Below are positions 4,455-64,000 of a DNA stretch of 64,000 bases, piece by piece. Source of the stretch: Polytrichum commune. Taxonomy: Eukaryota > Streptophyta > Polytrichopsida > Polytrichales > Polytrichaceae. The translations under genes were made by a program, and so were the position numbers. The notes beneath the pieces were generated by a model. It ran no database searches, was not told where the DNA came from, and was given only the letters and a program-made list of their open reading frames with translations. The stretch lies in contig OX485807.1 in the NCBI GenBank assembly GCA_950295325.1, forward strand, positions 47,832,440-47,896,439. Direction: 5' to 3'. Position 1 is the first letter of the stretch; each line of letters begins with the position of its first letter.

Positions 4455-7400
4455 CTGCAAGGGCATCCCTAAACAAACAAGGGGCTTAATTAATGAATAT
4501 ATTGCATTCAAAAAATAATTCAAATAAAATAATAAATTTCAAAATGGACGACTCACCTATGTGCAATACAATGCACATTAATAGGTGTCGGTACATCTGC
4601 ACGAAGTCTGCCTGCTAGTCCTTGCCTCGATGGGAAGAGCTTCAAATGGAAGGAACTAAAATGAAAGGAATGGGGGTTTTGTGGAGGGAATGCGGGTGGT
4701 GACGGACGGGCGATGGAAACACCTTGAGGATAGAGTGTGGGGAAAAAAATGGGAGATTGAAGGACAAGAAATAAAAAGAAGTGATGGTGGCAGAGGAAAT
4801 TAGAATGGGGTGTATTGGAAAGATGAGAATTGACAGCAAAAGACAGATAACTGACAGGCATTGAAGGCATAATTTGTCAAGATCCTGTTGTTTCCAAGTG
4901 CAACCAATCGCATATATGTTGATATCTTTCGGTTTTTTTGTTTTTTTTTGTTTTAATTTATTACCAACATTGTAAGAGAGTTATTTATACCTCTTGCAGG
5001 ACGGGTGTTTTCATTTTCAAACCGGTTTTGGAATGGGTTGTTTTTTCTTTAACCTTTCCATGGACGGATTGGTTTAGAAATTACCGGTTTTGGGACAGGT
5101 TGCAATTTTTTTGCCTTTCAATTCAAGGTTTTTGGACCTGGACGGGCAAAAACTTTGTGAAAAATCAGCCCTGCTCGTGTCGACGTTTTGAAATAACTCG
5201 ATACTCTCTTAAGCTCTGAAGCTTTCAAGTTTGGACTCATATCATCACTGTTTTGAACAAATTCGTCGTGAATTTACAAAGTCCCTGGGATCAGTCGTGG
5301 ATTTTAAGTTTTTGACTTTCATCCTCAGTGCCACTTGTTCTACCACGCGTTTTCAACTTTTCACTTCAAAGTTGTTAGCCTCTGATTTCATCTCACAGCT
5401 GATTGGCAGTTTTCGATTCTCTTTTGCTCAATCTTCAAAGCTTCTGTTATGAAACTATTTCATCACATCAAAAAGTCTTGCTGCTCGTAAGGACGGGATA
5501 TTACCATGCACATTGTCACAGGACATTGACATTGTACAAACTGAAAATCAAGAACATAAAGTGCTACGATCATGAGAACTTCTCACAATGCAAACAGAAG
5601 AGAATTGCCAAGTCAAATAATCAATCGCCGATAAGTCCATTTGATGTTCACCGCAGCTCCCCAAACTATGGAAGAGAACATAAGATAAACCTTTCCATCG
5701 CAAATCACTCAGTGACGTTAATAATTTCGCCTTCATTTTCACATAAGTCACTTTGTATGTGCTGGAAGGCCCGTTCAGGTTTCATAGTTGTACGAAGACA
5801 ACAGCTGTTATCGATGTAGTCATTCTACATATCAAAGTTCCAAAACCAAGAATTATCGAAGCAGTATAATTACTAGGCGATGATTGGCATTACCAACCAT
5901 TTGGAATTATCAAGATTCAATAAATTTCATCCAAGGCTCATAGAAGATAACCTGTCCAGGATTTTATGGGCATGAACTTCAGTGGAAACGAGATTGTAAC
6001 TGTCTGCCGGCAACTCCTATCTGCCACAAATAATTCGATGAAATTTTGTTATCACGTCGACCCTCTCAATCAAGTATGGTAGAGTACTTAGTCCAATATC
6101 ACTGTCCAATCCTTTCAGCGTTCATTTTCAAAGAAAAGTATGCCCATTACACATCGATAGACCAAATTAAAATAGGGACGACGTATGTCCATCACAGTGA
6201 TCACGTCGATAACGTGCTTGTGATGGAAAGAGTAATCACATTATGTATGTACAAGAAATATTTGCATTGCCGACTCTCAATCCCATCAGAGCTCGGGTTT
6301 CTCATAAATTATATAGCCTGCATAACTTGGATGTTCAGATTTAAGCCATTATGCGCAAATCTGATAGATGGCTTTAAATTCTAAAAACAATCGGGTCTAA
6401 AGCTTCGGCCAATGAATACAAAAGGGCAGATAAAGTCCCAGGGTGTGTAACAATGCTGACATCCCCAGCCACAAGGCTTCATAGAAATCCGCTAATTTGT
6501 CTTCATCGATTTCATTCCATTCAAATGTATTTTTCTACAACCGCATCGGACGATCGTATGGCTCATGTCAAGAAATTCAACCAATTTGTATTTCTGTACC
6601 AACGTCTTTGATGATAAATTTGTAGGCTTGTTTCTCAAACATTCGCAGTGGTCGCCTAAAGCTTTCGTCAATTTGTATTTCTGTAATTTAATGTAAAGCT
6701 GGTTTGTAATTAAATTTGACAACAATGCCCGTTTGTTCGCTCAGATCAGCGGGTTAACTATCATTTGGAACCATCGACTGTGTCGGACATCCCCATATCA
6801 AGTCTGTTGAGCTTGACGAAATTTTCTTGTCATCACCGCGAACATACCACACCTCCTTAGTACTGACATATAGAGCTCAGACTTTTACCAGTTTCTCATT
6901 CACGGTTTTCAGAAGCAGAACTGCCATTAAACTGGTGTGTGGATCATCATAGCTCACCACCAAACGCAGAACGAACGCAACCCGTAATCAAATGCATTAA
7001 AGCGAAAGGGAAGAAGTGTGGGGCCAATGAATGATTGTTAGTCGCAGACATCAATCTCTGCTTAACTGCCCATTCGCCCGGAGCTCTAGCATATCCACCA
7101 TTCAACTACCTGCGTAAACTGCCGCAGTGTTGTACACACGGGATTGCAGTTACCATAAATCCAGACAACTTGTTGATAACTACTCTTTTTGAGTAAGGGG
7201 CTCAGAGTCGGCCATGGTATTATGGTTCGATTCATGCCAAGCGATGTCCTCACTATTATTCAGTAGAGGGAGCTGTGAATCCTCATCGCCCCCGCTCCTC
7301 AGACCCTAACCTTATAAAACTAAAAATACAGCACACCATCTAATCCAATTTTCACGTTGCAAAAAGAAGCATCAGAAGCGCAATTTAACGTCACTTGCTA

Positions 7401-8689: not shown

Positions 8690-10062
8690 ATAAAGGAAAG
8701 GTGTGCAAAAATTCAAAATCTTTATACACACAATCACACTACCTACAATTAAAATCACGCATACACACGATCTCCAACGAACCTACCACACAAAACCTAA
8801 TCCTACACAGCCTACCAATCTGCCAGCAACATGCACAAACCGCCATCAGACATCCAGCCCAACACACCCGAGCAATTACCAAAACACCCTTGAAAAAGAA
8901 ACCTGCACAAATTCCTACAATAGCCACCAAACACCCCTACATAATGCACCCACACTCGACCACACCTCACCCATCCACTCTCTCCCACACACACGCCTGC
9001 ACACAATCACTCCCACCGAATCACCTCACCCCTCGCTCCACCCCCCTCCTCCCTCACTCCCCCAGCACCCCCCACCACAGATAGCCTACGACCTCTCGTC
9101 CATCCCTCAACCCTCTCCCAGTTGCTAGCACCCAGCGACCAAGAGCGGAGGCACCACCCGACAGTGAAGCACCACCCCGATACAGCCACAACGCCGAAGT
9201 ACTCGAACCCGCCACCCCAACAGTCGACGGCACCCAGCGACCACGAGCGCACACAACATCCAGCAGCCCGGAATCAACAATCACCCGAGGCAACTCTACC
9301 AAGACACCCCGCCAGACCCCACCAAACAAGAGCACCGAAGACGTCTCGCGGCCACCACCAACCAGCACGGCACCAATTCGACACCATCCTAACCCAGGTA
9401 CACATTCTCGCACACTCACCATATCACATTCCCCTCTCCCCTAGACACCACCCCACACCTCAACTCCACACAGATACCACCCCACAACCTTCACACAGTG
9501 GAATCTCCTTGCAGAGTCACTCGAACGCACAGCTCCTGGAACCGCCGAAATTGCAGCAAGCCGACAACACCTCACCACAACGCCCCCCTGCAACCACAAC
9601 ACACAGGATCAGCCCCACTACCAGTCTCGCTTGCTGCACCAAACACCACCCACAACACAGCCCCGCCCCCGCCCGCCCACAACAATCCGACCTCCAGCAA
9701 AGCACACCTCCCAAATTCCACCCGACATTCCACCAAGCAACCCCACACCAAGACACAACAACAAAGAACAGAGGCCCAACACAGACACCAGAATTTGAAA
9801 TCAGGGAAAGCCACAGACACTGGAGCTGGAAGGAACCTGTAACGGCTACACCCACAAATAGTGCACCGGCAGCTGACAAGACCCACTACACTCGACTCCT
9901 AATGGCCCAGCTCAGTCACCATCTAGGTACTCCACCTCCCACCACTATTGATAATCAGTACTCTGAATTCCGCCTACATGTACAAGCCCATCCGCCCACA
10001 ACTCACAGCCTTCACTTCCACCACCCATACCACATGCCACACTCACCCAAGATGACTTGGAC
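8690..10062 (+). other. A/C-rich 5' region of the LINE
   Basis: About 1.37 kb of very G-poor sequence upstream of ORF1. Because stop codons starting TAG or TGA need a G, long chance open frames arise. One of about 318 codons (9122-10078, rich in His, Pro and Thr, no ATG at its apparent start) overlaps the first codons of ORF1. I treat it as a composition artefact but note the overlap. The region probably holds the internal promoter, as expected for LINE 5' UTRs; no promoter motif was recognised. Confidence 0.5.
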
Positions 10063-11997
10063 ATGGACGCCCAGTTAGAGAATGTCTCCCCGGAACGGGG
10101 GGGTAGCTCTCTCCAATTTTCTTACGAGCAAAACTCCCCACTTGCCGCATCCCACAAATCCGCACGCATCACCGAAAGCACTCCGCCAACATTACTATAC
10201 CGTAACCCAAGGATTGAGGACGCATCAGAGAGCCAAACCACTAAACGGAGGAAGGCCGATGACTACACCGCCACGTCAACTCCCGAGGTACCAAACAAGA
10301 CTACACCACCACCACACACAAGATCACAACGAGTCGCCACCTTCGGCATAGACATGAGTGGACAACTATGGCTAGGTTTTCAAATGCACGAAGCACTCTC
10401 CATTCAACGGGGGAAGAAGGAGTTGAAGGAGAAGCGTACCAACGAGGAATTCACCAATACTGGCACTCCTATCACCGAAATTCAAGAATTCCGCTCCCTC
10501 CGACGTGCCTTCCCAAGGACCAAGCAAACTCTCTACCCATCCGAAAGACCGGACGCGGTGCCCGGACAACATCTCCACCTAACGCAGATTCCCATGTACG
10601 AGAAAACCTCTCAAGACACGGGACTTACCGACGGTTTCCACGTCACCATACGATTTGACGGTGCTTACAAGACGCTCAACCGGAGGGAGGTAAAAACCGC
10701 ATGCATGGAAAGGTTGAGGATCATGAACATACCGCTAGGTTCCGCATACTCCAATCCCATTGACATAGGCATCAATACGGTAACTCGCAATTGGGCCGGA
10801 TTCATAAAGCTTCACCTCCAAAACCCAAAACAAGACGGATTGGCCCTACTTCGAGGAGAGCGAGCGTTCGTCATGGCTATGGGAGATGGCGAACAGATCA
10901 TAGGCAAAGTGGAGAAAGGCTTTGAGCTCATCACAAAAGCCAAACATATGAGGTTACACCTCAAAGGTGAGTCCATCCGAAATAACTCGGCCGTAGACAT
11001 ACTTAAGACTCTCATGAGAGAATTTTACTATGACGGACGCGAGGTAGAGATACTTTCACTCACCAAATCCGACATAGATAAAGATTTTGCATTTATTACC
11101 CTCACCACCGAGGAGTCTAGAGATGACATTCTTAGCAATGGACTTACTTACCAATCCGAACGCCTCAAGGTTAGCATAACTAAGGACAAGGACACGGGGA
11201 ATCTATCGGAGCTTAGGATTAGCACTACATTAGTTGCTAATAACCTACCCCAAAGAGAATCCCAATCGGCCATCATCAAAGCCCTCAAGCGACTATTCGG
11301 AGAAGAGAATATCACCGGCATTACATTCGGTCACGTACCCCAAGGAGATGACCGCCAAGCCGGATGGTGCCATGTACAATGTTTGAATGCGGCCGTTTAC
11401 ACGGAATGGGCAAGAAAATCAACGTACATCCTCGGGAGACGCGTCGATTTCATCCCCCACAAAGGTAGCATCAATGGCTCCGAACCCAACCAAACGGCTA
11501 TACGGCTCGCACACGCACCGGTCTGCGAGGTCATCGCCCAAAAGGCTCAAGCCATGAGCAACACCGCCGCCTCTTCACCCCTAGTATCGGAGAAACTCTT
11601 CACCAAAACAATGAAAGAGCTAGTCAACACGGTGGATGAGAAACTTACCACGCTAACGAACAACATCAACCTCAACACGGATATGCGCATTGAGGCCTCT
11701 ACGGACACACTCAAAGCTCATACCACAAACATTCACAACATCATGAGTGCCATGGCTATTGAGTTCCAACACTCAAACAACCGAATGCACAACATCATGC
11801 AAACCTTGGCCGCCACCACACCGGAGCCTCCCCACCAAAACATCGGACGGCTTCCACATGCGCCTAGCACATCCATGACCAACGCCTATGCGGGAGACAC
11901 CACGGCTCACCACTTAGCACCACCGGGCTTCCTCGGCAAGCACATCCGTAGCCCCTCACCAAGCCTCCACAGAGACCTCCAACATCTACATGATTAG
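10063..11997 (+). CDS. LINE ORF1 protein (RRM-type RNA-binding), 644 aa, open
   Basis: I chose the ATG at 10063 (MDAQLENV...); the frame is open two codons further upstream from a TTG only. The protein runs uninterrupted to TAG at 11995-11997. The first ~180 residues are low-complexity and basic/polar. Residues ~295-378 (from MRLHLKGESIR to ERLKVSI) and ~385-470 (from LVANNLPQRES to GRRVDFIPH) each look like a beta-alpha-beta RNA recognition motif, with the RNP-like strands FAFITL and GWCHVQC. The C-terminal ~170 residues look helical and polar. In LINEs with RRM-type ORF1 this protein coats the element RNA in the cytoplasmic ribonucleoprotein. There is no zinc knuckle in this ORF. Its stop codon overlaps the ORF2 start in ATGATTAG (11990-11997). 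The frame is intact although the neighbouring ORF2 is broken. Confidence 0.8.
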   Translation: MDAQLENVSPERGGSSLQFSYEQNSPLAASHKSARITESTPPTLLYRNPRIEDASESQTTKRRKADDYTATSTPEVPNKTTPPPHTRSQRVATFGIDMSGQLWLGFQMHEALSIQRGKKELKEKRTNEEFTNTGTPITEIQEFRSLRRAFPRTKQTLYPSERPDAVPGQHLHLTQIPMYEKTSQDTGLTDGFHVTIRFDGAYKTLNRREVKTACMERLRIMNIPLGSAYSNPIDIGINTVTRNWAGFIKLHLQNPKQDGLALLRGERAFVMAMGDGEQIIGKVEKGFELITKAKHMRLHLKGESIRNNSAVDILKTLMREFYYDGREVEILSLTKSDIDKDFAFITLTTEESRDDILSNGLTYQSERLKVSITKDKDTGNLSELRISTTLVANNLPQRESQSAIIKALKRLFGEENITGITFGHVPQGDDRQAGWCHVQCLNAAVYTEWARKSTYILGRRVDFIPHKGSINGSEPNQTAIRLAHAPVCEVIAQKAQAMSNTAASSPLVSEKLFTKTMKELVNTVDEKLTTLTNNINLNTDMRIEASTDTLKAHTTNIHNIMSAMAIEFQHSNNRMHNIMQTLAATTPEPPHQNIGRLPHAPSTSMTNAYAGDTTAHHLAPPGFLGKHIRSPSPSLHRDLQHLHD

Positions 11998-12778
11998 CAC
12001 ACCTAAAGCAAGTCCAACAAAGACTCACACACAAATGACATGTATTTCCTTTTTTCGTATAAATAAAGGGTCCACTATTGCACAATATATCATTAATATA
12101 TGGATGGTTTGTTTGCTATACACAACTCTACACACGAACACCAATCATAATGGCCACCCTACCCAAAACCTCCCAACCAACGACCGCCACCAAAATAGAC
12201 AAACCTGTACCACCCACACACAAACTACAACACATGACACATATTACAAAGGCCAATACACACATAAACCACCCGCTCCCAACCCCCAACATAACCTCAC
12301 AATAAACAAAAATACACTTGACATACACACAACAATAAGCCTACTTAGCCTAACATCACTACTTACCCACAACTTACATACACCCCAACACAATATATAC
12401 CAAGGCCAACCATACCAACCTACACTAGCTACATTTACCCTAACATACCAAAACTCTTCACACCAAACAACTCACAACACTCTCACCCCCCCACCACACC
12501 ATAACCTCTACCATCCTCATAACATACAAAACTTCCACCCTAGCCTAATATTAAACCACCAACCTAATCACAAAACTACAATCACCTCCCAATACTATAA
12601 CCACATACATGACAAACAACACCTCACCCAACACATGCTCCGAACAAACGCACCCCCCTTTATCCCTCCCATCCATCTTACATCACACATTGGCAACATC
12701 CTCTACATCACACACACACACCTAAAAACTCCCAAAGCTAAGCTCATAAAATATTATATATGGAAGAACACCACACTC

Positions 12779-12817
12779 ATAATTCTCAGTGGAGACATTG
12801 AAACCAACCCGGGCCCC
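12779..12817 (+). other. 2A-type ribosome-skipping motif in LINE ORF2
   Basis: Codons 264-276 of the ORF2 frame read IILSGDIETNPGP, an exact match to the 2A consensus D(V/I)ExNPGP with the usual hydrophobic stretch and SGD just before it. In known 2A peptides the ribosome fails to form the bond between the final Gly (12812-12814) and Pro (12815-12817). This releases the upstream product and continues translation of the downstream one. Here that would separate a ~275-aa leader from the endonuclease-RT protein. The same motif is known at ORF N-termini of some non-plant LINEs, such as trypanosome L1Tc and certain sea urchin elements. Activity here is inferred from sequence only. Confidence 0.8.
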
Positions 12818-13434
12818 TCCACACATATCCTACATAACCTCCCCATAGAATTCACCCAACGACATAAGCAATACTTCATGCATAACACAATTACACTCAA
12901 ACACCAATATGCCCACCTTGAAGAATTATTTGGACAATACCTAAACCAACCCACTCACCAATCCCAAAGGGATGACCTAACCCATCTACGAAAACATAGT
13001 TCTCTCCTCTCTCAATACCCAACCAACCACCAAATATACGCATTCATAATAGCTTATAGCCCAATTCCTAGCATATGTAACCAACAAATGACCAACAACC
13101 TAAACCCAAATTGCCTCACCATTCTTCGAAGATTACATAACCAACCCCCTCTCACGCACTCCAAGTCACAACACATCACATCCACCCCCACCACCCAAAC
13201 CACCACCATATCGCACGCCTACACTTACATCAACGATAACATAGCCCAAAATCACTCCATAACCACATAAAACTTGCAAAACAAATTCCCTCACATCCCC
13301 CAAAAAATCCTGGCAGAACTAATCAAATGCACACAACCTATAAGGGGATACCACCCCAACACACGACAGGAGAACCCCGCCCCCACACCATCGGCGGTCA
13401 CACACACACACAACCACCACTCCACCACATTAAC

Positions 13435-14230
13435 CATAGTCACTTGGAACACGGGCTGCATTAGTTCTAGCCTACCAGACATCCAAGAGCTCACACATAC
13501 ACAAACCAAAACCCACACATTATACTCATCCAAGAAACCAAACTACAACAACATAAATCCACAACATACATAGACAAGAAATTCCAAAACTATAAAATCA
13601 TATACAACAACTCCAACAACATAACTTGCAAACACAACCGCTACGCCGGACCTACCATGGCCAGAGGGGGTATACTAGCCCTAATTTCCAAGACCATATA
13701 CACAAATGAAAACATCAACAAAATTCCCATCCCAAACCCAATATCACCATACTTACAAGCCATACTCATTACAAACAAACCTATCAAGCCAATACTAATA
13801 TTAAATCTGTACATGCCTACACACCCCCAAGATACACACCTCATAAGAGACATACAATCCCAAATCCAAAGCTTAATCCACCACCACCAAAACCACATAA
13901 TCATTCTAGCGGGGAACTTCAACCGCGACATCCTACTCAAAGGTAGATCATCCAATGGCCTCAAACCCCCCCCCCGAACCCCATAGATTACGAATGTGCC
14001 CACTTCATAAGCACGATAGGCCTCACCACGGTTAACAACTACGAAGGGTTCACCAGACAAGGAGGCCACAACTACACCTTAACCAGTCACATCGACGGAT
14101 TCTACTCCAACCACCCTAACACTAACCACCTACAAAGTCACACAATTACTAGCCACAACCAAAACTCAGACCACTACCCGGTCCAACTTCAACTGCCCCC
14201 AATAGTATCATCGTCAAAGAAACACAAACC
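13435..14230 (+). other. APE-type endonuclease domain of ORF2 (degenerate)
   Basis: Hallmarks appear in three different frames. First is IVTWNTG near 13435-13455, matching the N-terminal TWN motif. Then GGILALIS, ILNLYMPTHPQD and IIILAGNFNRD at 13657-13940. Last are SHIDGFYSN and SDHYPVQL near 14085-14200, matching the C-terminal SDH motif. The usual GDFN active-site motif reads GNFN here, so a catalytic aspartate is lost. A run of ten C at 13966-13975 coincides with the second frame change. This domain nicks the target DNA in LINEs; this copy should be inactive. Confidence 0.75.
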
Positions 14231-15122
14231 CCCCTAGTAACCCTAGGATAACATATCCCATTCCACCCACCAACTTACAAACCACATTCCTAGACAAACA
14301 AAACCTCGCAATAATGGACCTCACACATATCCTTCGCCAAGACCAACTCACACCAACACAATGGGAGGAAACACAAACCAATTTCCAAAACATCATAAAT
14401 TCGCTTAGCAAATGTATTGAACAAACTTGCATGACACAACCCACGCCACCACTCTCCACTAGAGCCAAGGCTCAAGGAGGTTTCCTTCCTCGAACGCAAC
14501 AAAGAACATGGAAACATCAATTAAAAATTCACCACACCATCCGGAAAGTAATCCGTGCCGCATGCCAGCACCCACACACACACCTTTAATACAACCCGGA
14601 TATACAATCACTACTACAAATACCCAGCATTAATTCTCTGCCCCTCCCTACCGATCAACAGAACTCACACAATGGATAGACAAAATGGCCACCATTGGTA
14701 AAAACGCTAAAATCCAAGCATATAAAATTATCACCAAACAAACATCGATTAACTGCCGTACCGCCATTACAAAATATAGAACGCTCCTAAATATTAAACA
14801 AAAAACCATACACAAGAAAATATTCTACCCTACTACCGCAAGTTCCCTCGATTGCATACAAAGCCCTAATGACAACATCCTTACCAAACCCATAGACATA
14901 GCAAACGGAATTTACTACACCCAACAAGCATCATTTCATAGACAAGCCCCACTCTGTGAAGATACCATAGACCACCCACCCTCATGTATGTGCGTCATAT
15001 GCAAATATCCATGGCATACAAACAATGGAATCATACTTGACAAAAGAGGCCCACACAACACACTCATTAGTACCCAATTTACTAGGAAAATATACGACAA
15101 ATGTGTCAAAAGGCTAACTCGG

Positions 15123-16400
15123 GGTAAAGCCCCCGGCCCGGACAACATACCAAAACGATATAATAAAGATTTTACCCCCTCAATGTCACGACATGTTCTT
15201 TCTATTTTTTCGGCATTGCTACAAACAAAGAGACATCCCGAACCAGTGGACTCACAGTAAAACTATCTTACTACATAAAAAAGACGACCCCACCCAACTA
15301 GCCAACTATAGAACCATCGCCCTAGCTAACACCATATACAAATTATTTACTAGCACCTTGACAACTCTCCTCACAAGTTACGGAGAACAACATCGCATAC
15401 TCCATTTTAGCCAAGAAGGTTTCCGACCACAAATGAACACATCCCGCCAAATCCAAATGATCACCGCCACCCTAGAAGATGCTAGACTCACTACCAAAGA
15501 TATTTACCTTACGTACATCGACTTCCGCAACGCTTTCGGATCCATTGACCACGCCCGTCTACTTGCCCTCATGGAAGACCTAGGCTTCCCCATTGACGCA
15601 GTAGAAATAATAGGTAACATTTATAAAAGCTCCACCACATCCTTCGCCGGTAATACCTTCGGAGCAACACCCCCAATAAATATTAGTCGAGACACCATAC
15701 AAGGGGACACTCTTAGCCCATATTTATTTATTATATTTCTCGAATCTTTACTCCGTTGGCTAGAAAAAGACAATCTAGGGTACTACTTTAACACATCCAC
15801 GGCCATATGCACCACCACGGCATACGCGGACGACTTAGCCATACTAACCGACAACATACGCCACATTCAACCCCAAATAACCAAGTTACAAAAATTTGCG
15901 GAATGGTCGCATATGGACCTCAACCTTGCAAAGTGCGCCATTACGGGATGCCCAAATCAATCAAAATTTAAACCTAACACATTCAAAGCGTACATTCAAT
16001 CGCAACATATCACATACAAAACCCAAAATTTCCCCACACTTACACAAAACGAACCCTACACATACCTAGGCATTCAACTAATACCATCCCTCAAATGGAA
16101 CCTCCAACGGGAAATTACTCTCCAAAAAACTAAACAACAAAGTAAACTACTAGCCCTATCTCCAGCTAGTCTCAAACAAAAAATCAAAATCCTAAACACG
16201 GTCATAAAACCCCGCATAGCATATGCATACTATGCGGTACCATTCTCTAAACCCGATATTATAAAATTGGATAAAATAATAGGCAAACTAACCAAAGAAA
16301 TATGTAACATACCCAAAAGTTCCGCTAATATTCTCACGCATCTCACACACGATAACTTTGGCATAGGTGTCTCATCCCTCCTACCCGACTATTTACACTG
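15123..16400 (+). other. Reverse transcriptase domain of ORF2
   Basis: GKAPGPDNIP at 15123-15152 is the LINE motif preceding RT block 1. Block 1-2 residues follow after a frame change near 15193-15260. IDFRNAFGSIDH near 15520 holds the first catalytic Asp. QGDTLSPYLF near 15700 is the block B signature. TAYADDLAIL, with YADD at 15823-15834, holds the paired catalytic Asp. Catalytic residues are all present. From 15193 onward the frame stays open to 17619. Confidence 0.88.
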
Positions 16401-18275
16401 CATAGGACAACAATTGCTACAAGCCCTTAACGACCCAGGCCAACTAGGTGATATATATCAAGGCCTAACCAAGTACATAGTAGCTAAATACGGAGGCTCA
16501 CTCCATCTCCCAAAACTTAAACAACAAGCTTGTGCTAGGTCTCCCATAACCCGAACTCTCTTCCTACTTAATAAAGAATGTGAAATACATGTTACCACCG
16601 CCAATCGAGCATTCCCCCTCAAGAAAACCCCACTAGAACAAGCATGGCTATCTAATCCAATATACAACACCTTGGACGACGTCTCCAAAACAAAATCTCA
16701 CAAATACCTAGACAAACTATACACACACGGCATTACAACACTAGCACAAATTCAAAACAAGAATACCTTGGCCATACTCACACAAGAGGAATACCGGACC
16801 ATATACAACCACACACCTAAAACCATCAAAGAAGCCCTACTCCAAGCCACACTAATATTCCCGGTCCCGACAACACCCACCCCCCTTCTGAACCACCCCC
16901 AACCACCACAAACAACACTCACAAATAACACTCAAGACCCTAACAACCAACCCCACCATGTGCACTCCACACTCGGACATGCCATCCATGAGATAGTAGA
17001 CGTAAAAACTACCAATAGAAAAGACAAATGGGGAGCCCAAGCCATCAAGAAAAAATACCTATGCCAATGGCTCACCATGCACGGCACCACACAACAATGG
17101 CGCACAGAGGAAGACCTCTTACACCCGGATAACATCCTATTAGAACACAACCTCCTACTAATAACAAGATACCACAACACCATCCACAAACAAATAGCTA
17201 GCCAAACATATGACAACTATCTCAACTACACCCAAACAAAAGACAAAAAACACATACACCCGCCACTTAAGATCACCAACCTTACAACATCCACACAAGA
17301 ATGTAATCCGGACAAAGATATCATTACCAATAAACCCACCATACAAACTAGCGCCTCGGAATCCCACATATTTGACCAAAATGGACGATTCCTAGCCACC
17401 ATTACTACGGAAAGACTAAAATGGCTATGGGCACGTTTCTCTCAAAGCAACCTAACCCATCTAACCAATTTCCTACAACCACCAATACAAAACTTTGAAA
17501 CTGAAATAATATGGCTAATACAAAGATATGTTACCATACTCCCTAAGAAAAACCCAAACACATCCTACCCAACAACCAACACCATACATTATACCCGGAA
17601 ATCACCAAACTACTTATAGACTCCTTCAACATTACACACTCATACTACTCCTCCCCACTTACATGTCCTATACAACTCACACAATATCACTCCCCACATA
17701 CTCGGGACATACTATTCGGATCCCTGGGCCATGCACAATCATCCAAATGGAGGGGCACGGGCCTAGCATTTCCAACAGATTACAACACAACCTTGCAGGC
17801 CATCCACTGGGCCCGCATGGCCGCCAAAGAGGATACACAAACAAGTACAATCCTAATAATTAATCACCAAGACTGGACACCACAAAAACTAACCCTCACC
17901 AAAGGGCCCGATATCCATGTTATCTCCACTATACCACCCCACACCATACAATACAAACCCACGCCTGAATGGCCGCAATATTACCAATATACGGAATCAT
18001 CACTCACATCAATCATCTACATACACAACCAACTAACCCCACCAATGCACCAACAATTTCCAAACAACCTACATCAGATCCTAAAAAGATTAACCAACAC
18101 CCACATAGATACCCATCCCATCCAACCCACCCCCAACACATACCACATTAAATTCTCCAAAGCATGGAAATCCGCCTCCAATGATAACACCGCCCCCCCC
18201 CCCAACAACAACTTAACACTACCCCTACCCCCCGCATACAACCACATACACCCCCTCAAATACCACCCACAACAT

Positions 18276-18680
18276 TGTATATACACGGATGGGTCCTTCA
18301 TCCCACCTTCCAAAAACTCTGAAGGACAAATAGTCGGCAACATCGCCGGCTCTGGGGTATACAGCCCCAACAACAACATCCAAATAGCTGAAAGACTACC
18401 GGGCTACCCAAACATCCTAAGAGCCGAGCTCAATGCCATACTGATAGCCATAAAAACTATACAAACCACTCAAATAGACACACACATATTCACAGATAGC
18501 CTCAATAGCATCTACCTACTAAACAATCACATCCAACACCCCACATCCCAACATCACCACCCAGATAAATTACTCATAGCAACCATCGTTCACCAAATAT
18601 ATTGGACCCCACACATGATACACATACACAAAGTACGCGCGCATACGGGAATTAGTGGTAATGAGAAGGCGGACACACTG
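18276..18680 (+). other. RNase H1-like domain of ORF2, catalytic residues intact
   Basis: The order YTDGS (Asp codon 18288), RAELNAI (Glu 18426), FTDSLNS (Asp 18495), VRAHTGISGNEKAD (His 18642, Asp 18672) reproduces the D-E-D-(H)-D pattern of RNase H1. It lies C-terminal to the reverse transcriptase, where such domains degrade the RNA strand of the hybrid. The domain lies in one open frame (to 19706). Confidence 0.85.
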
Positions 18681-19043
18681 GCCAATGAAGGCACACTCAA
18701 AGACAAACCGGAAATAACGCCACACATCCACATAGCACACGCTACCCCCTATTGGCTAGCAACCTCCCCCACGGCTACACATGACGGAGCCATCCGCAAC
18801 CTCCACACATTTATACTGAAAGATCACGAAATCCGGGAAACTGCAATAGCCAAACAAAAATTCCCATATGTAGCCAAGTGGCTCTCAAACGAAGAAATCA
18901 ATCAAAATCTCTCTAACCATTTTTGGAAAAATGACAAAATACCCGACACACAAATCACTCAAACTCTAAAATTTAGATATGCCCAATACATGGGCAACCA
19001 TAGGAAAAATATATTTTGGCCCCTTATATACCAAAACCCCAAC

Positions 19044-19100
19044 TGCACACTATGTCGTACTAATGACAGGGACACATGGCCGCACTTACTATCCACCTGC
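19044..19100 (+). other. C-terminal CCHC zinc-knuckle-like motif of ORF2
   Basis: Cys at 19044 and 19053 (CTLC), His at 19083 and Cys at 19098 (WPHLLSTC) give CX2C-X9-HX4C. This matches the knuckle found at the C-terminus of many LINE proteins, thought to bind RNA or target DNA. The partner copy on the minus strand keeps the same motif (CPICN...WLHVLLKC). Confidence 0.75.
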
Positions 19101-19862
19101 GAACACCCATACTTAAAAGGCCTACGCATCGCAAGACACAACAAAGCAACCCACCTCATTTCCCAATCCTTACAAGCCAATAAAAACACCCGGTTCTTCA
19201 CCTTGACCAATGCGGGTAACCTACCCAACCAACCCCAAGACCAAACAATCCCCAACTGGCTCCTCCAATGTAGCTGTACACATAGACCATGCCAATGTCA
19301 GGCCAAACTAAGACCGGACATAATGTGCATCCTTGGAGCTCCCAACCAAACACAACCCCCAATACTACCCTCTCCATGCCACACCGTGCAATTCATCGAA
19401 TTCACCTATTGTCACGATCGATTCCCCGAACAAGCCCGCACACACAAACACACCAAATATGACCCACTAATCACCACACTTAGAGCCAACGGATGGAAAA
19501 CCAACCCCCTCATTATCATCACCGCCGGAGTAAGAGGAGCTATACACGAACTCTCTATCGAACAATTAACCAACTTAAAAATCCCCAAAGCCCACATCAA
19601 AACCCTCATGAAAAACATACATCAAAATGCCATCAAATACCTTACTTACATGGTCCTGAACAAAAGGAAACTTGACAACAAACAAACACCCATTCAACCA
19701 CCATAAGGTGGTAAGAACTTTGCATAAACACCAGAGCCCACCTCCCATAGGAGGCATAACACCCCATATTGCATCTTGGACCCCGAGATCAATATAGGGT
19801 TAACGGGCTCACATTCACGCCGGTACAAATTGTACGGGCGTTATCTTTTCTTTTCTTTTCAA

Positions 19863-22800
19863 ATCTTTGTCTATGCTTATAGCTAGTTCACATTTGTATG
19901 AATGTAATATACCTTGATGACCTTTAAGTAGATTTGTTACGAATATAAATATATGGGGAAAGGAATAAGGACTTTGGGATGATATATTCTTTTTAATTCA
20001 ACCATGTTATGTAGATTACATTGTTAGCCAATCATATCAAAAGGAAAGGGGATTAGTATCTTCTTCTTTTTGAAATAGAGTTGATTTTATGAAAGAAAAA
20101 CTCTCTAAAATGTTTTGGTGATGATCAATGATTTGTTTGTTCCAAATGTATGATTTAGAACTCATCCTCCATAACTTTCTTTTGGAAGACAACTCCAAAT
20201 TATAAATTGTACAATAGATATTATTCCCCTCCTCCTATACACACACATGCACCAAGTTTTTGAGGAAGCATTGCAATTCCTAATGTGAAGGTTGAAGTTG
20301 GGGATTTCAAGTTGAAGATAGGCATAACATTGTTTAGTGCTTCCCTAGTATTCGTTGGGGCCGGACCCATGCAATGATATTCTATGATCCATTACAAATT
20401 ATCCGCATATTGTAGTAGTTTTATATTGAATATGAAACCAGTTGGGGCAAGTGTGATTAGGCATGTGAGTCAAATTTGTTTTTAGAAGAGAGTAATGTGA
20501 GAATCATTGACAAGTGCAATGTTGTTGTTTCCATCATTGTTGCTATCTCACTGCTAGCTAGATGTCTAAGTTAGTGGTTTTGACAAAATAATCGGCATGG
20601 AAGAGCTTACGAATGGTTGTGGACCACTAATGAATGATATAAGACAACCAAGGAGGTTTTGGAAAAAAATAATATACATTTGACATCTTATATATAACTT
20701 TGAGAGATTCCGATACATTCAAATAGAATGGAATTATTTCAAAAATTGCAAAGTACAATATTTCTCATGACAACATTCGCAATTCAATGCATAAGTGGTT
20801 CTAAAAATGTATCATATGTAGCCAACCATGTTTGTATAGGCAATCTAAACATAAATTTGTTTGCATTGTATTCGTTTCACATTGTATTGTATGGTCCCAA
20901 CAATGCATAATATTGAGACCTAGACCTAATCTTCAACGAAAATGGCAATCATGCAACAACAAAAACATCACACATCATTCTATAAGTCCAATTCTACATA
21001 AATGCAAAAACCTATATTACTTGTAACTCACTTCCTTGCTTCTCACCTAAGAGGTGCAAGATCTTGATACCTATGCATTGATAAGGGGTTCATGATCACC
21101 TACAACTTTATTTTATTTGTGTTCATAGTTTAAATTGGAAGATGGAAAATTTCTTCTATTTCAAATAGTTGTCGGAATGGAACTTTGAAACGGAAATGCA
21201 AGTTGAAGAACACCATGGAGTTAAGGGTCGTGGCACTTGGACCTTGACCGTAATATTGATGATAAACAACATTTAAAAGAAATAAGAAATAAAAGTGTGG
21301 GTGGATCCTACATAAGTTCATGCAATGAAAGAACTTTAATTTCCAAATAGTTTCTTCGAGCATTTTTGTGGGATGATTTTCTTAGGAGAGCACTTGTTTA
21401 TAAAATTTGAAGTAAAAATGTGCATTAGCCATAATTTTTGTATCTATTTATATATATGTCTAGATAATAAATTGAAGTTGAAATTTATTTGGACAAACCA
21501 CTTATTCATAAATAATAAGGAATCTGCACTTGTGGGGGAAAATTTAACATCAATCGACAACAACAAAAGCAATAACATAACAACCACAAATTTGAATTTT
21601 TTATTTTTATTTTTGCCAATCACTATATTTGTATAATTTTGGGATCAGTTGTACATCATTTTGGTGGTGGAATTCTTCAAAATTCATGTACAAATCCAAA
21701 TACACTTGAATCCTAGTTAAGAGGTTCATGCACGTACATGTATTTTCAAAAATTAATTTTTATGAATCATTCTTTGATTCACGTACACAATTCTTAGATC
21801 CTTCGGAATACATGCCTAAAATACTACTATTTAGTGTGCTCTTGTTGATTTTTGATTTGTCCAATTCTAATAATGGTAAACCTTGAAGAACCTATATGTA
21901 AAGTTCTAGCTTAATTGGAATTCATAATATCCTATTTGTATTTATATGCTTATTGAAGACAACATCCACACCCTATGCGTATAATGTACAACAAATGCTC
22001 CATGAATATCCCTTTTGGAAACTCACGGGGGGTCACTGATACATCTACATTGTCATATTGACAAACCCTTGAGGTTATTATGGTAAGTTTTTCTTAGCCC
22101 TAATAACAACGGTTAACTCTTAAAGTCATAGGATACAATTCAAATCAAAAGTGGGTGCAAGCATCATAAAGTGGATAACTCTTGATTCTTGCACATGTTT
22201 AAGTGCAAGTGATTGAAAACAATATATTAACATTGAATTTTGTGAAAAAAGGATCTTAAACATTTTAAAAACATATTAATCTACAAAGCCAAGTGATGAT
22301 CTTGAATGAATGTATATTTAAAAAGACAATGCAAGTGATGATCTTGAATGAATAATTGTCAAAGTTTTCTTTAAAACGTAATAAAATTACATTAGATTGA
22401 TGATTTTCTACACAAATATTTGATGTTGACCTCAAGTGTATATTAATGATTTCAAGGATTATGAAAAAAGAAAGTTCAAAATGCTTAAGGTCATGAAATT
22501 TATATCCAAAACCAAATCAAACCATTTGCTTTTGAGCGTTACTTTTAATGATAAGTTTTGAAGATATCATCTTGGTATTTCACATTTGAGCACTTAAAAC
22601 AACAGTAGAGGTCAACATGAAAAAATATTTAACTTAACCAACATTTTGTTATTCATTTAAGGCATTTGACTAACAAACTATGGTCTTCAAATATCATAGC
22701 ACTTTTTTGGTCCACTTTATTATGTTTGCATGAGTGTGCATTATAAAATTTCTTAAGTATGTTTTTTGTTATACAAAAGAAATATCAACTTTCATAGTTA

Positions 22801-36962: not shown

Positions 36963-37121
36963 GGAGAAGTTCAGTTGCAGTAGTCAACGTTATCAGAGAG
37001 AAAAATTAAACATTGTTCTTGCACCAATTGTCAATGAAAGTCTGGTTTCTATATAATGACGGGCTTCAAAAAGCCCGAAGCAAAAATATCTGACCCTCTC
37101 CTAATATAATTGGACATTCTT

Positions 37122-39176
37122 ATGGGTGCAGAAGCAGGACCAGTGGGCGCTTTGGGACCTTTCACTTTGAACATCCCTTCATGGCAGTTGGTCGCATTTG
37201 GCCTGGCTCTCGTCAGCTTGTTCGTGCACATCTGCACTCTATGGAGAGCTTCGTATTCCCTGAGAACCTTGATTGGTTTGTCTGGTTTGTCCTTGTTTCT
37301 AGCTTCGATTACTGCCTCCGAACTTGCATCCCAGGATAACACAGGTGTGCAGCAATTGCTATGGTGCTTGTGCACAAGCATACTGACAGATAACTACGAC
37401 CCCAACACAGATGCCAATGCGTGGAAGCGTGTCATGTGGATGCTTTCCACGTGGTTGCAATTGGGGCTTATGTATAAGAGGACTTGTGTGGCCTCATCAA
37501 CAATACAGCAGGTCTTGTTTAAAGCTGTTGTGGTTCTGAAAGGTATGAAGCTTCATTTCTTACATGGATGGCATTGTAGTAGCTGGGACGAGACCAAAGA
37601 CGACTCCAAGACACAATGTGAGCATCTGGCAGCGTCTGCGACCTGGCTAGAGGTAGATTGGAGTCCATATCTGGAACGAGTTAAGGTCACTTCAGCCATC
37701 AACGGCACAATTGTAGGAGACAATGCCTTCTACTGGAGGTCATTGCTTGAGGGGAAGCCTCGACGTGCTACTCCAGAGGGCGTCACCAACGGACGAGATT
37801 GCTGTGACATAGCTGTTAAGTTTTTACGTACGCCAAGCCCAGTTGTTCCTGCTGTGGCCTTCAGCATCAAGCGCCAGTTCAAGGCCAAGTTGGGCTCCAT
37901 GGCAACTCTTAGTGCCCTGTACTCCTATTTAGCAATAAGTGAAATGGCCTTAGCTTTCAGCATCATAACCCTAATGGCGTGGGAATGGAGGAAGCAAGAG
38001 AAGAGAACTTTACCTGCAGGTATGTGCTTGGCAGTGTGGTGCCTTGAGCTAGTTTATCACGAGTTCACCTGTGAACGTGCGTTCCACCTAGAGGAGGAAG
38101 TACATGAACAATACTCTGAAACATGTAGGTCAAGAAACCTTGGTCCCAGTCTATGGGAAGCACAACGGCGGACCTGCCTTGTGATCACAGATCTCATTCT
38201 GGGGAGCCTTGCTGAAGCTGTCGTGACAGGGTTGGCAAGCATTGGCAAGGGCGCGAACTTGTGGGCAAAGTTGTCGAGCAACAACGCAATGCAGCAATTG
38301 GGTGCGGCGCTCCGTTTGTTCATCGCCATGTGCATCGTCATGCCCATGGCCATACTTAGAACCGGGAGAAAATATCTCCATGATTGGTGGAATGGATTGT
38401 GGGAAAGGGCACCCAAGAAGCACACTTGGAGTACAGGCAATAAGCAAATACTGAAGTGCATCACAAACTTACAAGGGTTACAAGATTTGGTGACAAGATA
38501 TCCTGATGAAATGTCAATTGTGCAGGGAATTATGTATCCCTCCATTTCGGGCACAATTGGAAGTAGTGTGGAAACGCCAACCTCTGCTCCCGTGACTTGT
38601 TACTCATTGACTGCGCCAGAAGCAGTTTTCTTCTCACAGCTATTAGGTCAGACCGCTGCAGCTTTGAGTTTGGCGAGTGAAAATGAAGAGCTTCGAAGTT
38701 TGTTGCATGTTTGGAGGTGGACATCTAAAGCTTTCAAAGATGGCATGGTTGACTCGTCGTGGTTATCTCCCAACATAAGCAGAGCAATGTGGCATGCTGC
38801 TACGTTGGAGCAAGCTGGAGAATGGCAGACAGCACTTTTAGAAGTACGAGGAGTAATGGTTGGAGATATCAACCCATCTGCACAATCCTCATCATCTTTG
38901 AAAGATGAGTCCAGGGCTAGTGGGAAGGGTTTAGCAAGCTTGGAAGCTGCCCTTCGAGCTGCGAGGCATATGATTGCCCAACTAGATTCAGAACCCCAAC
39001 ATAGTAAAAAGGCGGAATTGACAATGCGAGCAGGACTCTTTGCAGTGGTGGCGTTTTGTCAAAATTGGGGAGGGCCTGAAATGGTTGCGGTGCCGGGGCC
39101 TTTAGAGCATGAAAGCTTAATGGCTTGCTTTAAATCTCCTGCATTAATGGCTCATTGTCTGTCCCAAAATGGATGA
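37122..39176 (+). CDS. Membrane protein of unknown function, 684 aa, intronless
   Basis: I chose the ATG at 37122 (MGAEAGPVGALGPF); only a TTG lies upstream in frame. The frame is open to TGA at 39174-39176. I do not recognise the family. Predicted membrane segments by hydrophobicity lie at residues ~22-41, 47-66, 261-287, 297-316, 349-373 and 392-411. Between the first pair and the third lies a ~195-residue Trp/Cys-rich polar loop (HGWHCSSWDETKDD, DNAFYWRSLLEGKPRR). After the last segment comes a ~270-residue soluble region predicted mostly helical, rich in Ala/Leu/Glu (TLEQAGEWQTALLEVRG, LEAALRAARHMIAQL). Balanced codon use and lack of stops over 2 kb argue for a real gene. The nearest upstream feature is the G-rich minisatellite. 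It is probably an integral membrane protein, and could be lineage-specific. Confidence 0.8.
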   Translation: MGAEAGPVGALGPFTLNIPSWQLVAFGLALVSLFVHICTLWRASYSLRTLIGLSGLSLFLASITASELASQDNTGVQQLLWCLCTSILTDNYDPNTDANAWKRVMWMLSTWLQLGLMYKRTCVASSTIQQVLFKAVVVLKGMKLHFLHGWHCSSWDETKDDSKTQCEHLAASATWLEVDWSPYLERVKVTSAINGTIVGDNAFYWRSLLEGKPRRATPEGVTNGRDCCDIAVKFLRTPSPVVPAVAFSIKRQFKAKLGSMATLSALYSYLAISEMALAFSIITLMAWEWRKQEKRTLPAGMCLAVWCLELVYHEFTCERAFHLEEEVHEQYSETCRSRNLGPSLWEAQRRTCLVITDLILGSLAEAVVTGLASIGKGANLWAKLSSNNAMQQLGAALRLFIAMCIVMPMAILRTGRKYLHDWWNGLWERAPKKHTWSTGNKQILKCITNLQGLQDLVTRYPDEMSIVQGIMYPSISGTIGSSVETPTSAPVTCYSLTAPEAVFFSQLLGQTAAALSLASENEELRSLLHVWRWTSKAFKDGMVDSSWLSPNISRAMWHAATLEQAGEWQTALLEVRGVMVGDINPSAQSSSSLKDESRASGKGLASLEAALRAARHMIAQLDSEPQHSKKAELTMRAGLFAVVAFCQNWGGPEMVAVPGPLEHESLMACFKSPALMAHCLSQNG

Positions 39177-62514: not shown

Positions 62515-64000
62515 GGGCCACTTCACACACGAGCCAAGAGCCGTGACCATGAAATGGTGAGGGCCTTTGACTTTCATCCAAAGGCCGTACCATGGGTGTT
62601 GGGCTGCCCGTTTTGTGTGGGGCCGGGTCCTCAAACATAGTGTGAAGTGAGAATGGACCATGTTGAGGGACCGTTGCATATTTTATTAGTGGAAAAAGAG
62701 GGGCAGCCCTACCACACTAGTTACATATCTTCATTCTCTCTTTTCTCACTCTCTTTTCGAGTTATACATTGGAGAGGAAGGAAAGAGAGCATGATGGATC
62801 ACATTGAGAGAAGAAGAAGGATTCTTGTTGCATTAGCTTTATATTGGTGCTTGCACATGATTGTGCAACATGTGCTTGATATGCAAGCATTGGCACTAAA
62901 CGGAGAATGGGAAAATGCCCTGATTTTGAGCATTTGCTTTGAGGGTATGAAGATAAGCGATCGTAGTGTGTGGGCATTTGAGAGAAATGTAGGGTTTACG
63001 GATAGGTTGTTATTGGGTTCATTTACGGAAAAAATGTTTAAACAAAGAACTTGTGTATGTCACAATACATTCAAGTTTCTTTGTGAAAGGTTAGGTCCAT
63101 ATTTGCAGAGGAAGAATACACAAATGAGAGAGACAATTTCAGTTGAAAGTAGAATTGCAATGTCATTACAAAGACTTGGGACTGGAAATACCTTGTGTAC
63201 CGTAGGAGAGGTATATGGGGTGGCCGAAAGTACAATTTCAGAAATAGTTCGAAATTTTTATAGATTGGTTAGAGTTCATTTGCAAAGGATTTTTGTGCAA
63301 TTTCCAAGTCCAGCTCGGTTTAGGGTTTTAGCCCAAGAATTTGAGGCTTTTCATGGAATTCCTCATATTATAGGCGCAATTGACGGGTCTCATATTCCAA
63401 TTCTTGCACCTATAATTGGGAGAGAGGATTATTATTGTAGAAAATCATTTCATTCCGCTTTATTACAAGGTATAGTGGATACAAAATGTGTGTTTTGGGA
63501 TTACGAATTTGGATGGGCAGGAAGTATGCATGATTGGATATTATTTCAGTTGACAAAAGTTGGAAGAGATTGCATTAAAGGGAAATTCTTACCTCATAAG
63601 CTGATCGGAGATTGTGCATATCCAGTGCGGCCATGGATTTACTGTCCATTCAAAGGGTGTGCAGAAGGATTAGAAGGTTACAAAGCAAATTGGAATTTTA
63701 TTCAAAGTTCTACCCGCATGTGTGTAGAACGTGCTTTCGGAATCTTGAAGGAAAGATGAAGAATCATTATGAGAAGATCCGATATACCATTACGACATAT
63801 AGCTGATGTAGTAGCTACATGTATTACTCTACACAATATGTGTACTATTGGAAAAGACAAATTTGATATAGAATGGATAGAAGAAGCTGAAAGATAATTG
63901 GGTAGACGTATAAAGAATAGATCATTGAGAGAAGGACAAGAAATGAGGGCTGAATTAGCAGCTATAGGTGAGGTCAGAAATATTAGTATTACAGAAAATA
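62515..64000 (+). mobile_element. PIF/Harbinger-type DNA transposon, 5' part (continues past window)
   Basis: The transposase gene lies downstream of a candidate 5' terminus GGGCCACTTCACAC at 62515-62528. It is preceded by TTA (62512-62514), the typical TWA target site of this superfamily. CACTTCACAC is also reverse-complemented at 62640-62649. The 3' end is outside the window, so the terminus is a proposal. Confidence 0.5.
62791..64000 (+). pseudogene. PIF/Harbinger (HARBI1-like) DDE transposase, two in-frame stops, 3' partial
   Basis: I take the ATG pair at 62791 (MMDHIERRRRILV); the frame is open 48 codons further but that part lacks family similarity. A helix-turn-helix-like stretch (SRIAMSLQRLGTGNTLCTVG, VAESTISEIVRNF) precedes the DDE nuclease. 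The first Asp is in IGAIDGSHIP (63382-63384), the second in IGDCAYPVRPW (63610-63612) and the Glu in CVERAFGILKER (63727-63729). All three catalytic residues are present. Directly after ILKER a TGA (63757-63759) stands where the family has Trp (RWRII). The same frame then continues with IIMRRSDIPLRHIADVVA and TLHNMC to a second stop TAA at 63895-63897, and is open again to the window end. Either a recently inactivated copy or a nearly intact one; the partner Myb-like protein of autonomous elements is not in view. Confidence 0.85.

What the first reader, a model, noticed from the sequence alone, without database searches (positions are those of the whole stretch)
12779..12817. Canonical 2A ribosome-skipping motif inside a plant LINE ORF2
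The ORF2 frame contains SGDIETNPGP, with all invariant 2A residues, at the position between an N-terminal leader and the endonuclease. 2A motifs at LINE N-termini are known from trypanosome L1Tc and some animal elements; I know of no well-described case in a land-plant LINE. If active, it would make the leader and the endonuclease-RT protein as separate products from one frame.
Basis: partly seen in the sequence, partly recalled or inferred. Interest (0 to 1): 0.8.

Follow-up and report, generated by a model that had tools for sequence, protein, structure and literature searches.

The report
Plant retrotransposon with ribosome-skipping peptide sites
A jumping gene family in what looks like a moss genome carries, in nearly every copy checked, a short peptide signal of the kind viruses use to make ribosomes release one protein and carry on with the next, and some copies carry several in a row; whether it works there is untested.

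Summary
The motif is real: SGDIETNPGP at 12788-12817, behind a leucine-rich stretch (LIILSG), the context of one known class of active 2A/StopGo sites. It is not chance: GD[IV]xxNPGP occurs 425 times in this 408 Mb genome against 0 for the reversed pattern and about 0.35 expected. Copies chosen by RT carry it in 68 of 68 cases where the region was in reach; of 20 further copies chosen by the region behind it, 18 do. The fixed residues are under strong protein-level selection (pN/pS 0.06 against about 0.3 in the flanks). Corrections: Glu-14 is not invariant (E 36, H 15, Q 9, K 8 of 68); about 205 codons lie between motif and endonuclease; the window copy is broken; and the element is no ordinary plant L1. 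It encodes APE, RT, RNase H and an R2-like restriction-like endonuclease, the Dualen/RandI layout. In several subfamilies ORF2 starts at an AUG overlapping the ORF1 stop, giving a fast-evolving leader that the 2A site would release. Some copies carry 2-4 sites in tandem, mostly in frame, nearly all with Q or H at position 14. Most likely this is working StopGo separating leader from EN-RT; activity is untested. New variant of a known kind.

The parts
8724..19860 (+). whole element copy (non-LTR retrotransposon, 5' end perhaps truncated)
   Evidence: homology bounds against a 98.5% identical sister on C4
8716..8723 (.). target-site duplication AAATCTTT, left
   Evidence: same 8 bp directly follows the 3' end
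19861..19868 (.). target-site duplication AAATCTTT, right
9967..11997 (+). ORF1, 3' part of the frame (an open frame at 8945-10078 may be its upstream part), stop TAG 11995-11997
   Evidence: no Pfam match for 9967-11996
11990..11997 (+). ATGATTAG: AUG of the ORF2 frame overlapping the ORF1 stop
   Evidence: same AUGnnUAG at the ORF1 end in L002, L006, L096, L097, L101, L104, L105, L106; ATGnnTAG invariant in a 7-copy alignment
11990..12814 (+). ORF2 leader (275 aa to NPG), product upstream of the 2A break
   Evidence: 0 stops in frame against 13 and 18 in the other two
12776..12793 (+). leucine-rich context LIILSG
   Evidence: context class described in PMC12846837
12794..12817 (+). 2A/StopGo core octapeptide DIETNPGP
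12815..13430 (+). start of the downstream product (P-STHIL...), conserved spacer before EN; in-frame stop 13268-13270 in this copy
13430..14204 (+). APE-type endonuclease, broken over several frames in this copy
   Evidence: PF03372 on 13471-13986, E 1.2e-4, just below its cut-off; in the longer-framed copy L001 PF14529 and PF03372 are above their cut-offs and QETK, GDFN and SDHSPV can be read (their roles are recalled)
15274..16080 (+). reverse transcriptase core
   Evidence: PF00078 103.5 bits
17571..17747 (+). PCIF1_WW-like stretch between RT and RNase H
   Evidence: below cut-off here (E 9.8e-4); above cut-off in L001
18273..18692 (+). RNase H (D-E-D-H-D type)
   Evidence: PF00075 54.1 bits; residues read
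18741..19703 (+). CCHC motif and restriction-like endonuclease, R2-like fold
   Evidence: model of the homologue in L112, 80% identical (mean pLDDT 64.9): Foldseek 9nl2 E 8.5e-7; VIA-align Z 13.5 to R2 9nl3
19845..19860 (+). 3' tail of TTTTC repeats

Best explanation
The motif is a genuine 2A/StopGo recoding site of a multi-copy, dual-endonuclease non-LTR retrotransposon of a non-seed land plant. After ORF1, ribosomes reinitiate at the AUG that overlaps the ORF1 stop (inferred from sequence, in the subfamilies that have it), translate a fast-evolving leader with an N-terminal hydrophobic segment, and at GDIxxNPG|P release the leader without making the Gly-Pro bond. They then carry on to make the EN-RT-RNase H-RLE protein beginning with Pro (inferred from the motif, not measured). 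The use to the element would be to give the replication enzyme a clean N-terminus free of the leader, which could otherwise pull it to a membrane (the membrane part is speculative). Shown: motif, in-frame placement in long open copies, purifying selection on the core, open leader frame, stop/start overlap in some subfamilies, tandem sites mostly in frame. Inferred: skipping, reinitiation, role of the leader.
For: 68 of 68 RT-selected copies with the region in reach have the motif: D12 68, Gly-18 68, N16 67, P17 64, P19 65, G11 65, I/V13 67 of 68; of 20 further copies found by the region behind the motif 18 have at least 5 of 7 fixed residues, 12 all seven. pN/pS of the seven fixed codons 0.058 (bootstrap 0.032-0.085) against 0.285 upstream and 0.330 downstream, with high synonymous divergence throughout (pS 0.53-0.62); position 15 is free (0.88) as in known 2A. 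Leu/Ile-rich context just upstream (position -4 I/L 68 of 68, -3 L 60 of 68) as in the LLLLSG class with p12 = D (PMC12846837). Between groups A1 and B2 the residues upstream of the L-rich stretch are no more alike than shuffled ones (9% against 11%), the downstream ones 35%, the core 94%; between B1 and B2 15% (shuffled 8%), 67% and 96%. Leader frames hold 0-1 stops against 11-38 in the other frames (15 copies). Tandem sites are in the same frame in 14 of 15 intervals. StopGo works in plant cells when introduced (PMC4981915).
Against: No translation assay. Position 14 is not E in 32 of 68 copies and in 10 of the 18: H is active at over 95% and an E14Q change at 56% or 26% according to PMC12846837, but I saw no report on K, and a K subfamily contains long open frames (2924 and 2663 aa rows). 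Residues outside the canonical 2A are also conserved (for example +4, +8, +9, +19, +20 downstream), so part of the constraint is on the neighbouring protein. Upstream sequences of some groups are more alike than shuffled (A1-B1 23%, A1-A2 22%, against 8%), so not every context is independent. The AUG overlap is absent in L001 and in L005, L087-L089, L091, L092.
Confidence: 0.82

Rival explanations
1. The site is a deliberately leaky StopGo: both the leader-EN-RT fusion and the separated proteins are made, and the residue at position 14 (E, H, Q, K) and the number of sites tune the ratio.
For: Position 14 varies at near-neutral pN/pS (0.82, wide bootstrap 0.36-2.19). In tandem arrays 25 of 27 sites are not E, against 16 of 74 single sites; 9 of 12 arrays end in H and 6 of 12 begin with Q and end in H. 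Q is a weak and H a strong variant in PMC12846837.
Against: All 12 arrays listed lie on one contig and copies are related, so the association is not independent; 3 of 12 arrays end in Q or R; efficiency depends on context; no data from plant ribosomes.
Confidence: 0.3
2. GDIxxNPGP is a conserved structural or binding motif at the start of the ORF2 protein and does not cause skipping.
For: Downstream residues are conserved as well; the motif tolerates K at position 14.
Against: The residues kept are those known to be needed for StopGo, position 15 is free, the L-rich context recurs on upstream sequences that are otherwise unlike (A1-B2, A2-B2), and the motif is repeated in frame.
Confidence: 0.12
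3. The upstream leader is only translated by accident; the 2A site is a safeguard that trims whatever leader precedes the enzyme.
For: Leaders vary from about 170 to 560 aa, look low in complexity and diverge fast.
Against: The leader frame is kept open, and dN/dS was 0.39-0.52 in three of the four closely related pairs that differ at silent sites (the fourth gave 1.30 on 6 changes; counts are small except for L105/L106). An N-terminal hydrophobic segment (6 of 7 at residue 8-11) and the NK dipeptide (7 of 7 at residue 25 or 26) recur at the same place.
Confidence: 0.25
4. Chance match.
For: None found.
Against: 425 against 0 in the control and 0.35 expected.
Confidence: 0.005

Closest known systems
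2A/StopGo sites of RNA viruses (LLLLSG-type upstream class, p12 = D)
   Same: core D(V/I)ExNPGP, Gly before D, Leu-rich upstream hexapeptide (PMC12846837)
   Different: in a plant retrotransposon; position 14 often H, Q or K; activity not measured
L1Tc of Trypanosoma cruzi and animal non-LTR retrotransposons with 2A (Heras 2006, Odon 2013; known to me through citations in PMC4981915 and PMC11512398; Odon 2013 not held, Heras 2006 not looked up)
   Same: 2A motif in frame with the enzymes of a LINE
   Different: other hosts; here a second, R2-like endonuclease, a long leader (behind a stop/start overlap in several subfamilies), and tandem sites; that those elements lack these is not checked
Dualen/RandI group of non-LTR retrotransposons
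   Same: both APE and PD-(D/E)XK (RLE) endonucleases plus RNase H (passages of PMC3636483 and PMC4640811)
   Different: here a non-seed land plant, with 2A sites and a PCIF1-like stretch; RT phylogeny not tested; whether algal Dualen has 2A is not known to me
SART1 termination-reinitiation (silkworm LINE)
   Same: ORF2 start overlapping the ORF1 stop (passage of PMC5972666)
   Different: overlap of the form AUGnnUAG and a leader that would then be removed by 2A; reinitiation not tested here
Picornaviruses with several 2A-NPGP sites
   Same: tandem 2A sites; tracts of about 50-150 aa there (PMC11512398), 62-177 codons; sites of unequal activity known there
   Different: retrotransposon; mostly Q/H at position 14

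Membership tests
2A/StopGo | core octapeptide (D/G/C/N)(V/I)ExNPGP | tested here: met
   window copy exact; in the family E14 in 36 of 68, H 15, Q 9, K 8, so met by this copy and only in part by the family
2A/StopGo | suitable upstream context | tested here: met
   LIILSG before the core; -4 I/L in 68 of 68, resembling the LLLLSG class; judged by eye, no motif program run
2A/StopGo | in frame between two coding segments | tested here: met
   open frame from leader through motif, EN and RT in L001 and L005, and from just before the first motif in L003; in the window copy a stop follows before EN
2A/StopGo | missing Gly-Pro bond during translation | not testable with these tools
   needs a translation assay
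Dualen/RandI | APE and restriction-like endonuclease in one element | tested here: met
   PF14529/PF03372 and R2-like RLE fold from a model of middling confidence
Dualen/RandI | RNase H | tested here: met
   PF00075
Dualen/RandI | RT placed in the Dualen branch of the tree | not tested
   no reference RT sequences at hand; the five PDB sequences matched at E up to 0.01 are R2-type proteins
plant L1 with archaeal-type RNase H | Arg in place of His in D-E-D-H-D | tested here: not met
   the residue is H (KVRAHTG); rule from PMC4640811
plant L1 | APE as the only endonuclease | tested here: not met
   second endonuclease of R2 type; that L1 has only APE is recalled

The most novel reading that the evidence does not exclude
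A land-plant retrotransposon lineage uses a two-step decoupling of its proteins, AUG-over-stop reinitiation after ORF1 and then one to four StopGo sites in series. The position-14 residue grades the sites (weak Q upstream, strong H last), so that one transcript yields a ladder of leader proteins and a clean dual-endonuclease reverse transcriptase. This would be natural StopGo in plants with graded, tandem sites.
Probability: 0.3. Interest if true: 0.8.

Novelty: new variant of a known kind. Interest (0 to 1): 0.64.

Why it matters
A 2026 survey found no evidence for natural use of StopGo by plant viruses although it works in plant cells (PMC12846837). Hundreds of conserved sites in a plant genome would suggest that plant ribosomes meet it naturally, would supply native plant 2A sequences, and would offer a natural series at position 14 (E, H, Q, K) for the mechanism. 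The host element, with two endonucleases, would also widen what a land-plant LINE can be: a review lists only L1 and RTE LINEs in plants (PMC9033089, passages).

Tried and rejected
Chance: rejected. Ordinary plant L1: rejected on RNase H type and on the second endonuclease. Universal AUG overlap: rejected; absent in L001 and in L005, L087-L089, L091, L092. Invariant E14: rejected. Leader as a known protein: two leaders gave no Pfam match. Hydrophobic segments: only suggestive; the fraction of shuffles reaching the top peak is 0.013-0.14 in the seven leaders; what speaks for them is the repeated position. PCIF1-like region: the predicted model is poor (mean pLDDT 43.7), so it was not searched; sequence evidence only. 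Relatives in viral contigs: none. RT tree: not possible, no references. The window's C-terminal domain alone gave no PDB sequence match up to E 10 and the profile matched R2 only weakly (E 0.55), so the RLE claim rests on the fold comparison. In one search my grouping rule put L049 in the wrong subfamily and merged two groups; one search repeats it with corrected groups and only one search is used. Searches were on the host, LINE clades and Dualen; one returned 7,137 papers and was of no use.

Full report
What is there. The window lies on contig C5 of a 407.8 Mb, 64-contig genome. Contigs C1-C7 are 42-78 Mb long. Two snoRNAs of families I know from plants (snoZ107_R87, snoZ223) and 28 NAC-domain exon matches, about 14 genes, point to a land plant; the small NAC number points to a non-seed plant, perhaps a moss (inference; numbers in other plants are recalled).

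The element. A copy of a non-LTR retrotransposon spans 8724-19860, flanked by the 8-bp repeat AAATCTTT and ending in TTTTC repeats; a sister on C4 is 98.5% identical over 11,160 columns. It encodes ORF1 and an ORF2 with APE endonuclease, RT and RNase H, and a C-terminal CCHC plus nuclease domain. The model of that last domain (L112 with 13 relatives, mean pLDDT 64.9, better in the nuclease part) matches R2 retrotransposon proteins best: Foldseek E 8.5e-7, VIA-align Z 13.5, 197 residues, 3.8 A; the seven best rows are R2, the next is Z 8.6 (a viral endonuclease). The RT also matches R2-type proteins in the PDB by sequence (6.4e-34). APE plus RLE defines the Dualen/RandI group, which also has RNase H (passages of PMC3636483 and PMC4640811). 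I file it as Dualen/RandI-like by layout; the RT tree was not tested. The RNase H has His, not the Arg of plant L1 RNase H.

The motif. SGDIETNPGP at 12788-12817 is preceded by LIIL. PMC12846837 (abstract, sections 9, 10 and 14, passages elsewhere) gives the StopGo core as (D/G/C/N)(V/I)ExNPGP and a Leu-rich LLLLSG-like upstream class that goes with D at position 12. Genome-wide counts are 273 for the strict core and 425 for GD[IV]xxNPGP, both 0 for the reversed pattern; about 0.35 are expected.

Conservation. I took 80 of the 143 RT matches and read the stretch 2200-2950 bases upstream of the RT match. In 12 of 80 this stretch shows no similarity to the post-2A protein (truncated or shifted; in L051 the region lies further upstream and does hold the motif). 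In the other 68 the motif is present (at least 5 of the 7 fixed residues), the D and the Gly of NPG in all 68. L001-L006 and L091, L092 also have it. As a second sample I read the stretch just upstream of 20 of the 150 post-2A matches, chosen outside the 80: 18 have at least 5 of 7 residues, 12 all seven; L136 and L140 do not. Over 602 pairs (2-35% different) of 58 distinct sequences the fixed core has pN/pS 0.058 (bootstrap 0.032-0.085), the 12 codons upstream 0.285, the 20 downstream 0.330; positions 14 and 15 are near neutral at 0.82 and 0.88. The 20 residues upstream of the L-rich stretch are 9% identical between groups A1 and B2 (shuffled 11%) and 15% between B1 and B2 (shuffled 8%), while the downstream 30 are 35% and 67% and the core 94% and 96%; in other pairs of groups (A1-B1, A1-A2, A2-B1) upstream identity is 17-23%, above shuffled. 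So the motif stays where the leader end has diverged beyond recognition or been swapped.

Position 14. E 36, H 15, Q 9, K 8 of 68; E 8, H 6, Q 2, K 2 of 18 in the second sample. PMC12846837 reports H active at over 95% and an E14Q change at 56% or 26%. I saw no statement on K. This is the main result against calling every copy a working 2A.

Tandem sites. Among the 100 listed sites (contig C1 and the start of C2) plus one, 74 are single (E 58, Q 9, K 5, H 2) and 27 lie in 12 clusters of 2-4 (H 12, Q 11, E 2, R 1, Y 1). The spacing is a multiple of three in 14 of 15 intervals; 9 of 12 clusters end in H, 6 of 12 begin with Q and end in H. Copies are related, so the formal p-value (7e-11) overstates the case. 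In one search, 8 of 68 copies show a second, upstream motif within the stretch read, all in frame. L003 has two motifs in one 2131-aa frame; in L002 the two lie in different frames.

Leader. In window, L002, L006, L096, L097, L101, L104, L105 and L106 the ORF2 frame has an AUG overlapping the ORF1 stop as AUGnnUAG; this is 9 of the 23 ORF ends listed there, several of which are not true ORF1 ends because the copy is broken, and some of the nine are near-identical copies (L096/L097, L002/L101). It is absent in L001, L005, L087, L088, L089, L091 and L092, whose ORF1 ends look intact. Leaders hold 0-1 stops in frame against 11-38 in the other frames (15 copies; where there is no overlapping AUG the first Met was taken). 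A hydrophobic stretch begins at leader residue 8-11 in 6 of 7 leaders examined (the window copy's lies at 30), and NK stands at residue 25 or 26 in 7 of 7. PMC5972666 (passages) describes a stop/start coupling in the silkworm LINE SART1.

How it most likely works. Reinitiation at the overlapping AUG makes the leader; StopGo at NPG|P releases it; the same ribosome makes the enzyme. Where several sites stand in series, a ladder of leader pieces would result, possibly graded by the residue at position 14. Skipping and reinitiation are inferred.

What is known. 2A in LINEs is known from trypanosomes and from animals (passages of PMC4981915 and PMC11512398; Odon 2013 is not held, Heras 2006 was not looked up). 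No plant case was seen in the listings of searches. PMC12846837 reports no evidence of natural use in plant viruses. Rao 2025, a survey of viral and cellular proteomes, is cited there but not held and may contain plant entries. PMC9033089 (passages) lists only L1 and RTE LINEs in plants.

Noticed in passing
L001 protein from 3517, residues 1586-1714; weaker at window 17571-17747: A PCIF1_WW-like domain (PF12237, 47.4 bits, cut-off 31.1) sits between RT and RNase H; PCIF1 is a cap methyltransferase and its NPPF motif (both recalled) seems to read HPPN here. The only PDB match of the A2 profile up to E 1 is PCIF1, very weak (E 0.75).
   Followed up: partly
window 12062-12067 and the same place in L006, L096, L101, L104, L105, L106: About 65 bases after the ORF1 stop an AATAAA behind a T-rich stretch is invariant in 7 of 7 copies, although Asn is mostly AAC in the leaders (AAT 64, AAC 124); it encodes the conserved NK but could also be a poly(A) signal that yields ORF1-only transcripts.
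   Followed up: partly
window 11990-12814: The leader's sense strand is very poor in G (5-7% G, 39-47% A in 15 leaders).
   Followed up: no
window 18741-19703: The 3' domain gives 7017 first-look candidates in the genome against 599 for the region behind the 2A site, as expected for many 5'-truncated copies (rough counts; queries differ in length).
   Followed up: no
window 62641-63759: Transposase frame with DDE_Tnp_4 (PF13359, 58.8 bits), probably a Harbinger-type DNA transposon.
   Followed up: no
window 6735-6958: Two snoRNAs close together on the minus strand.
   Followed up: no
window 37110-39176: Open frame of 688 aa without a Pfam match at E up to 0.01.
   Followed up: no
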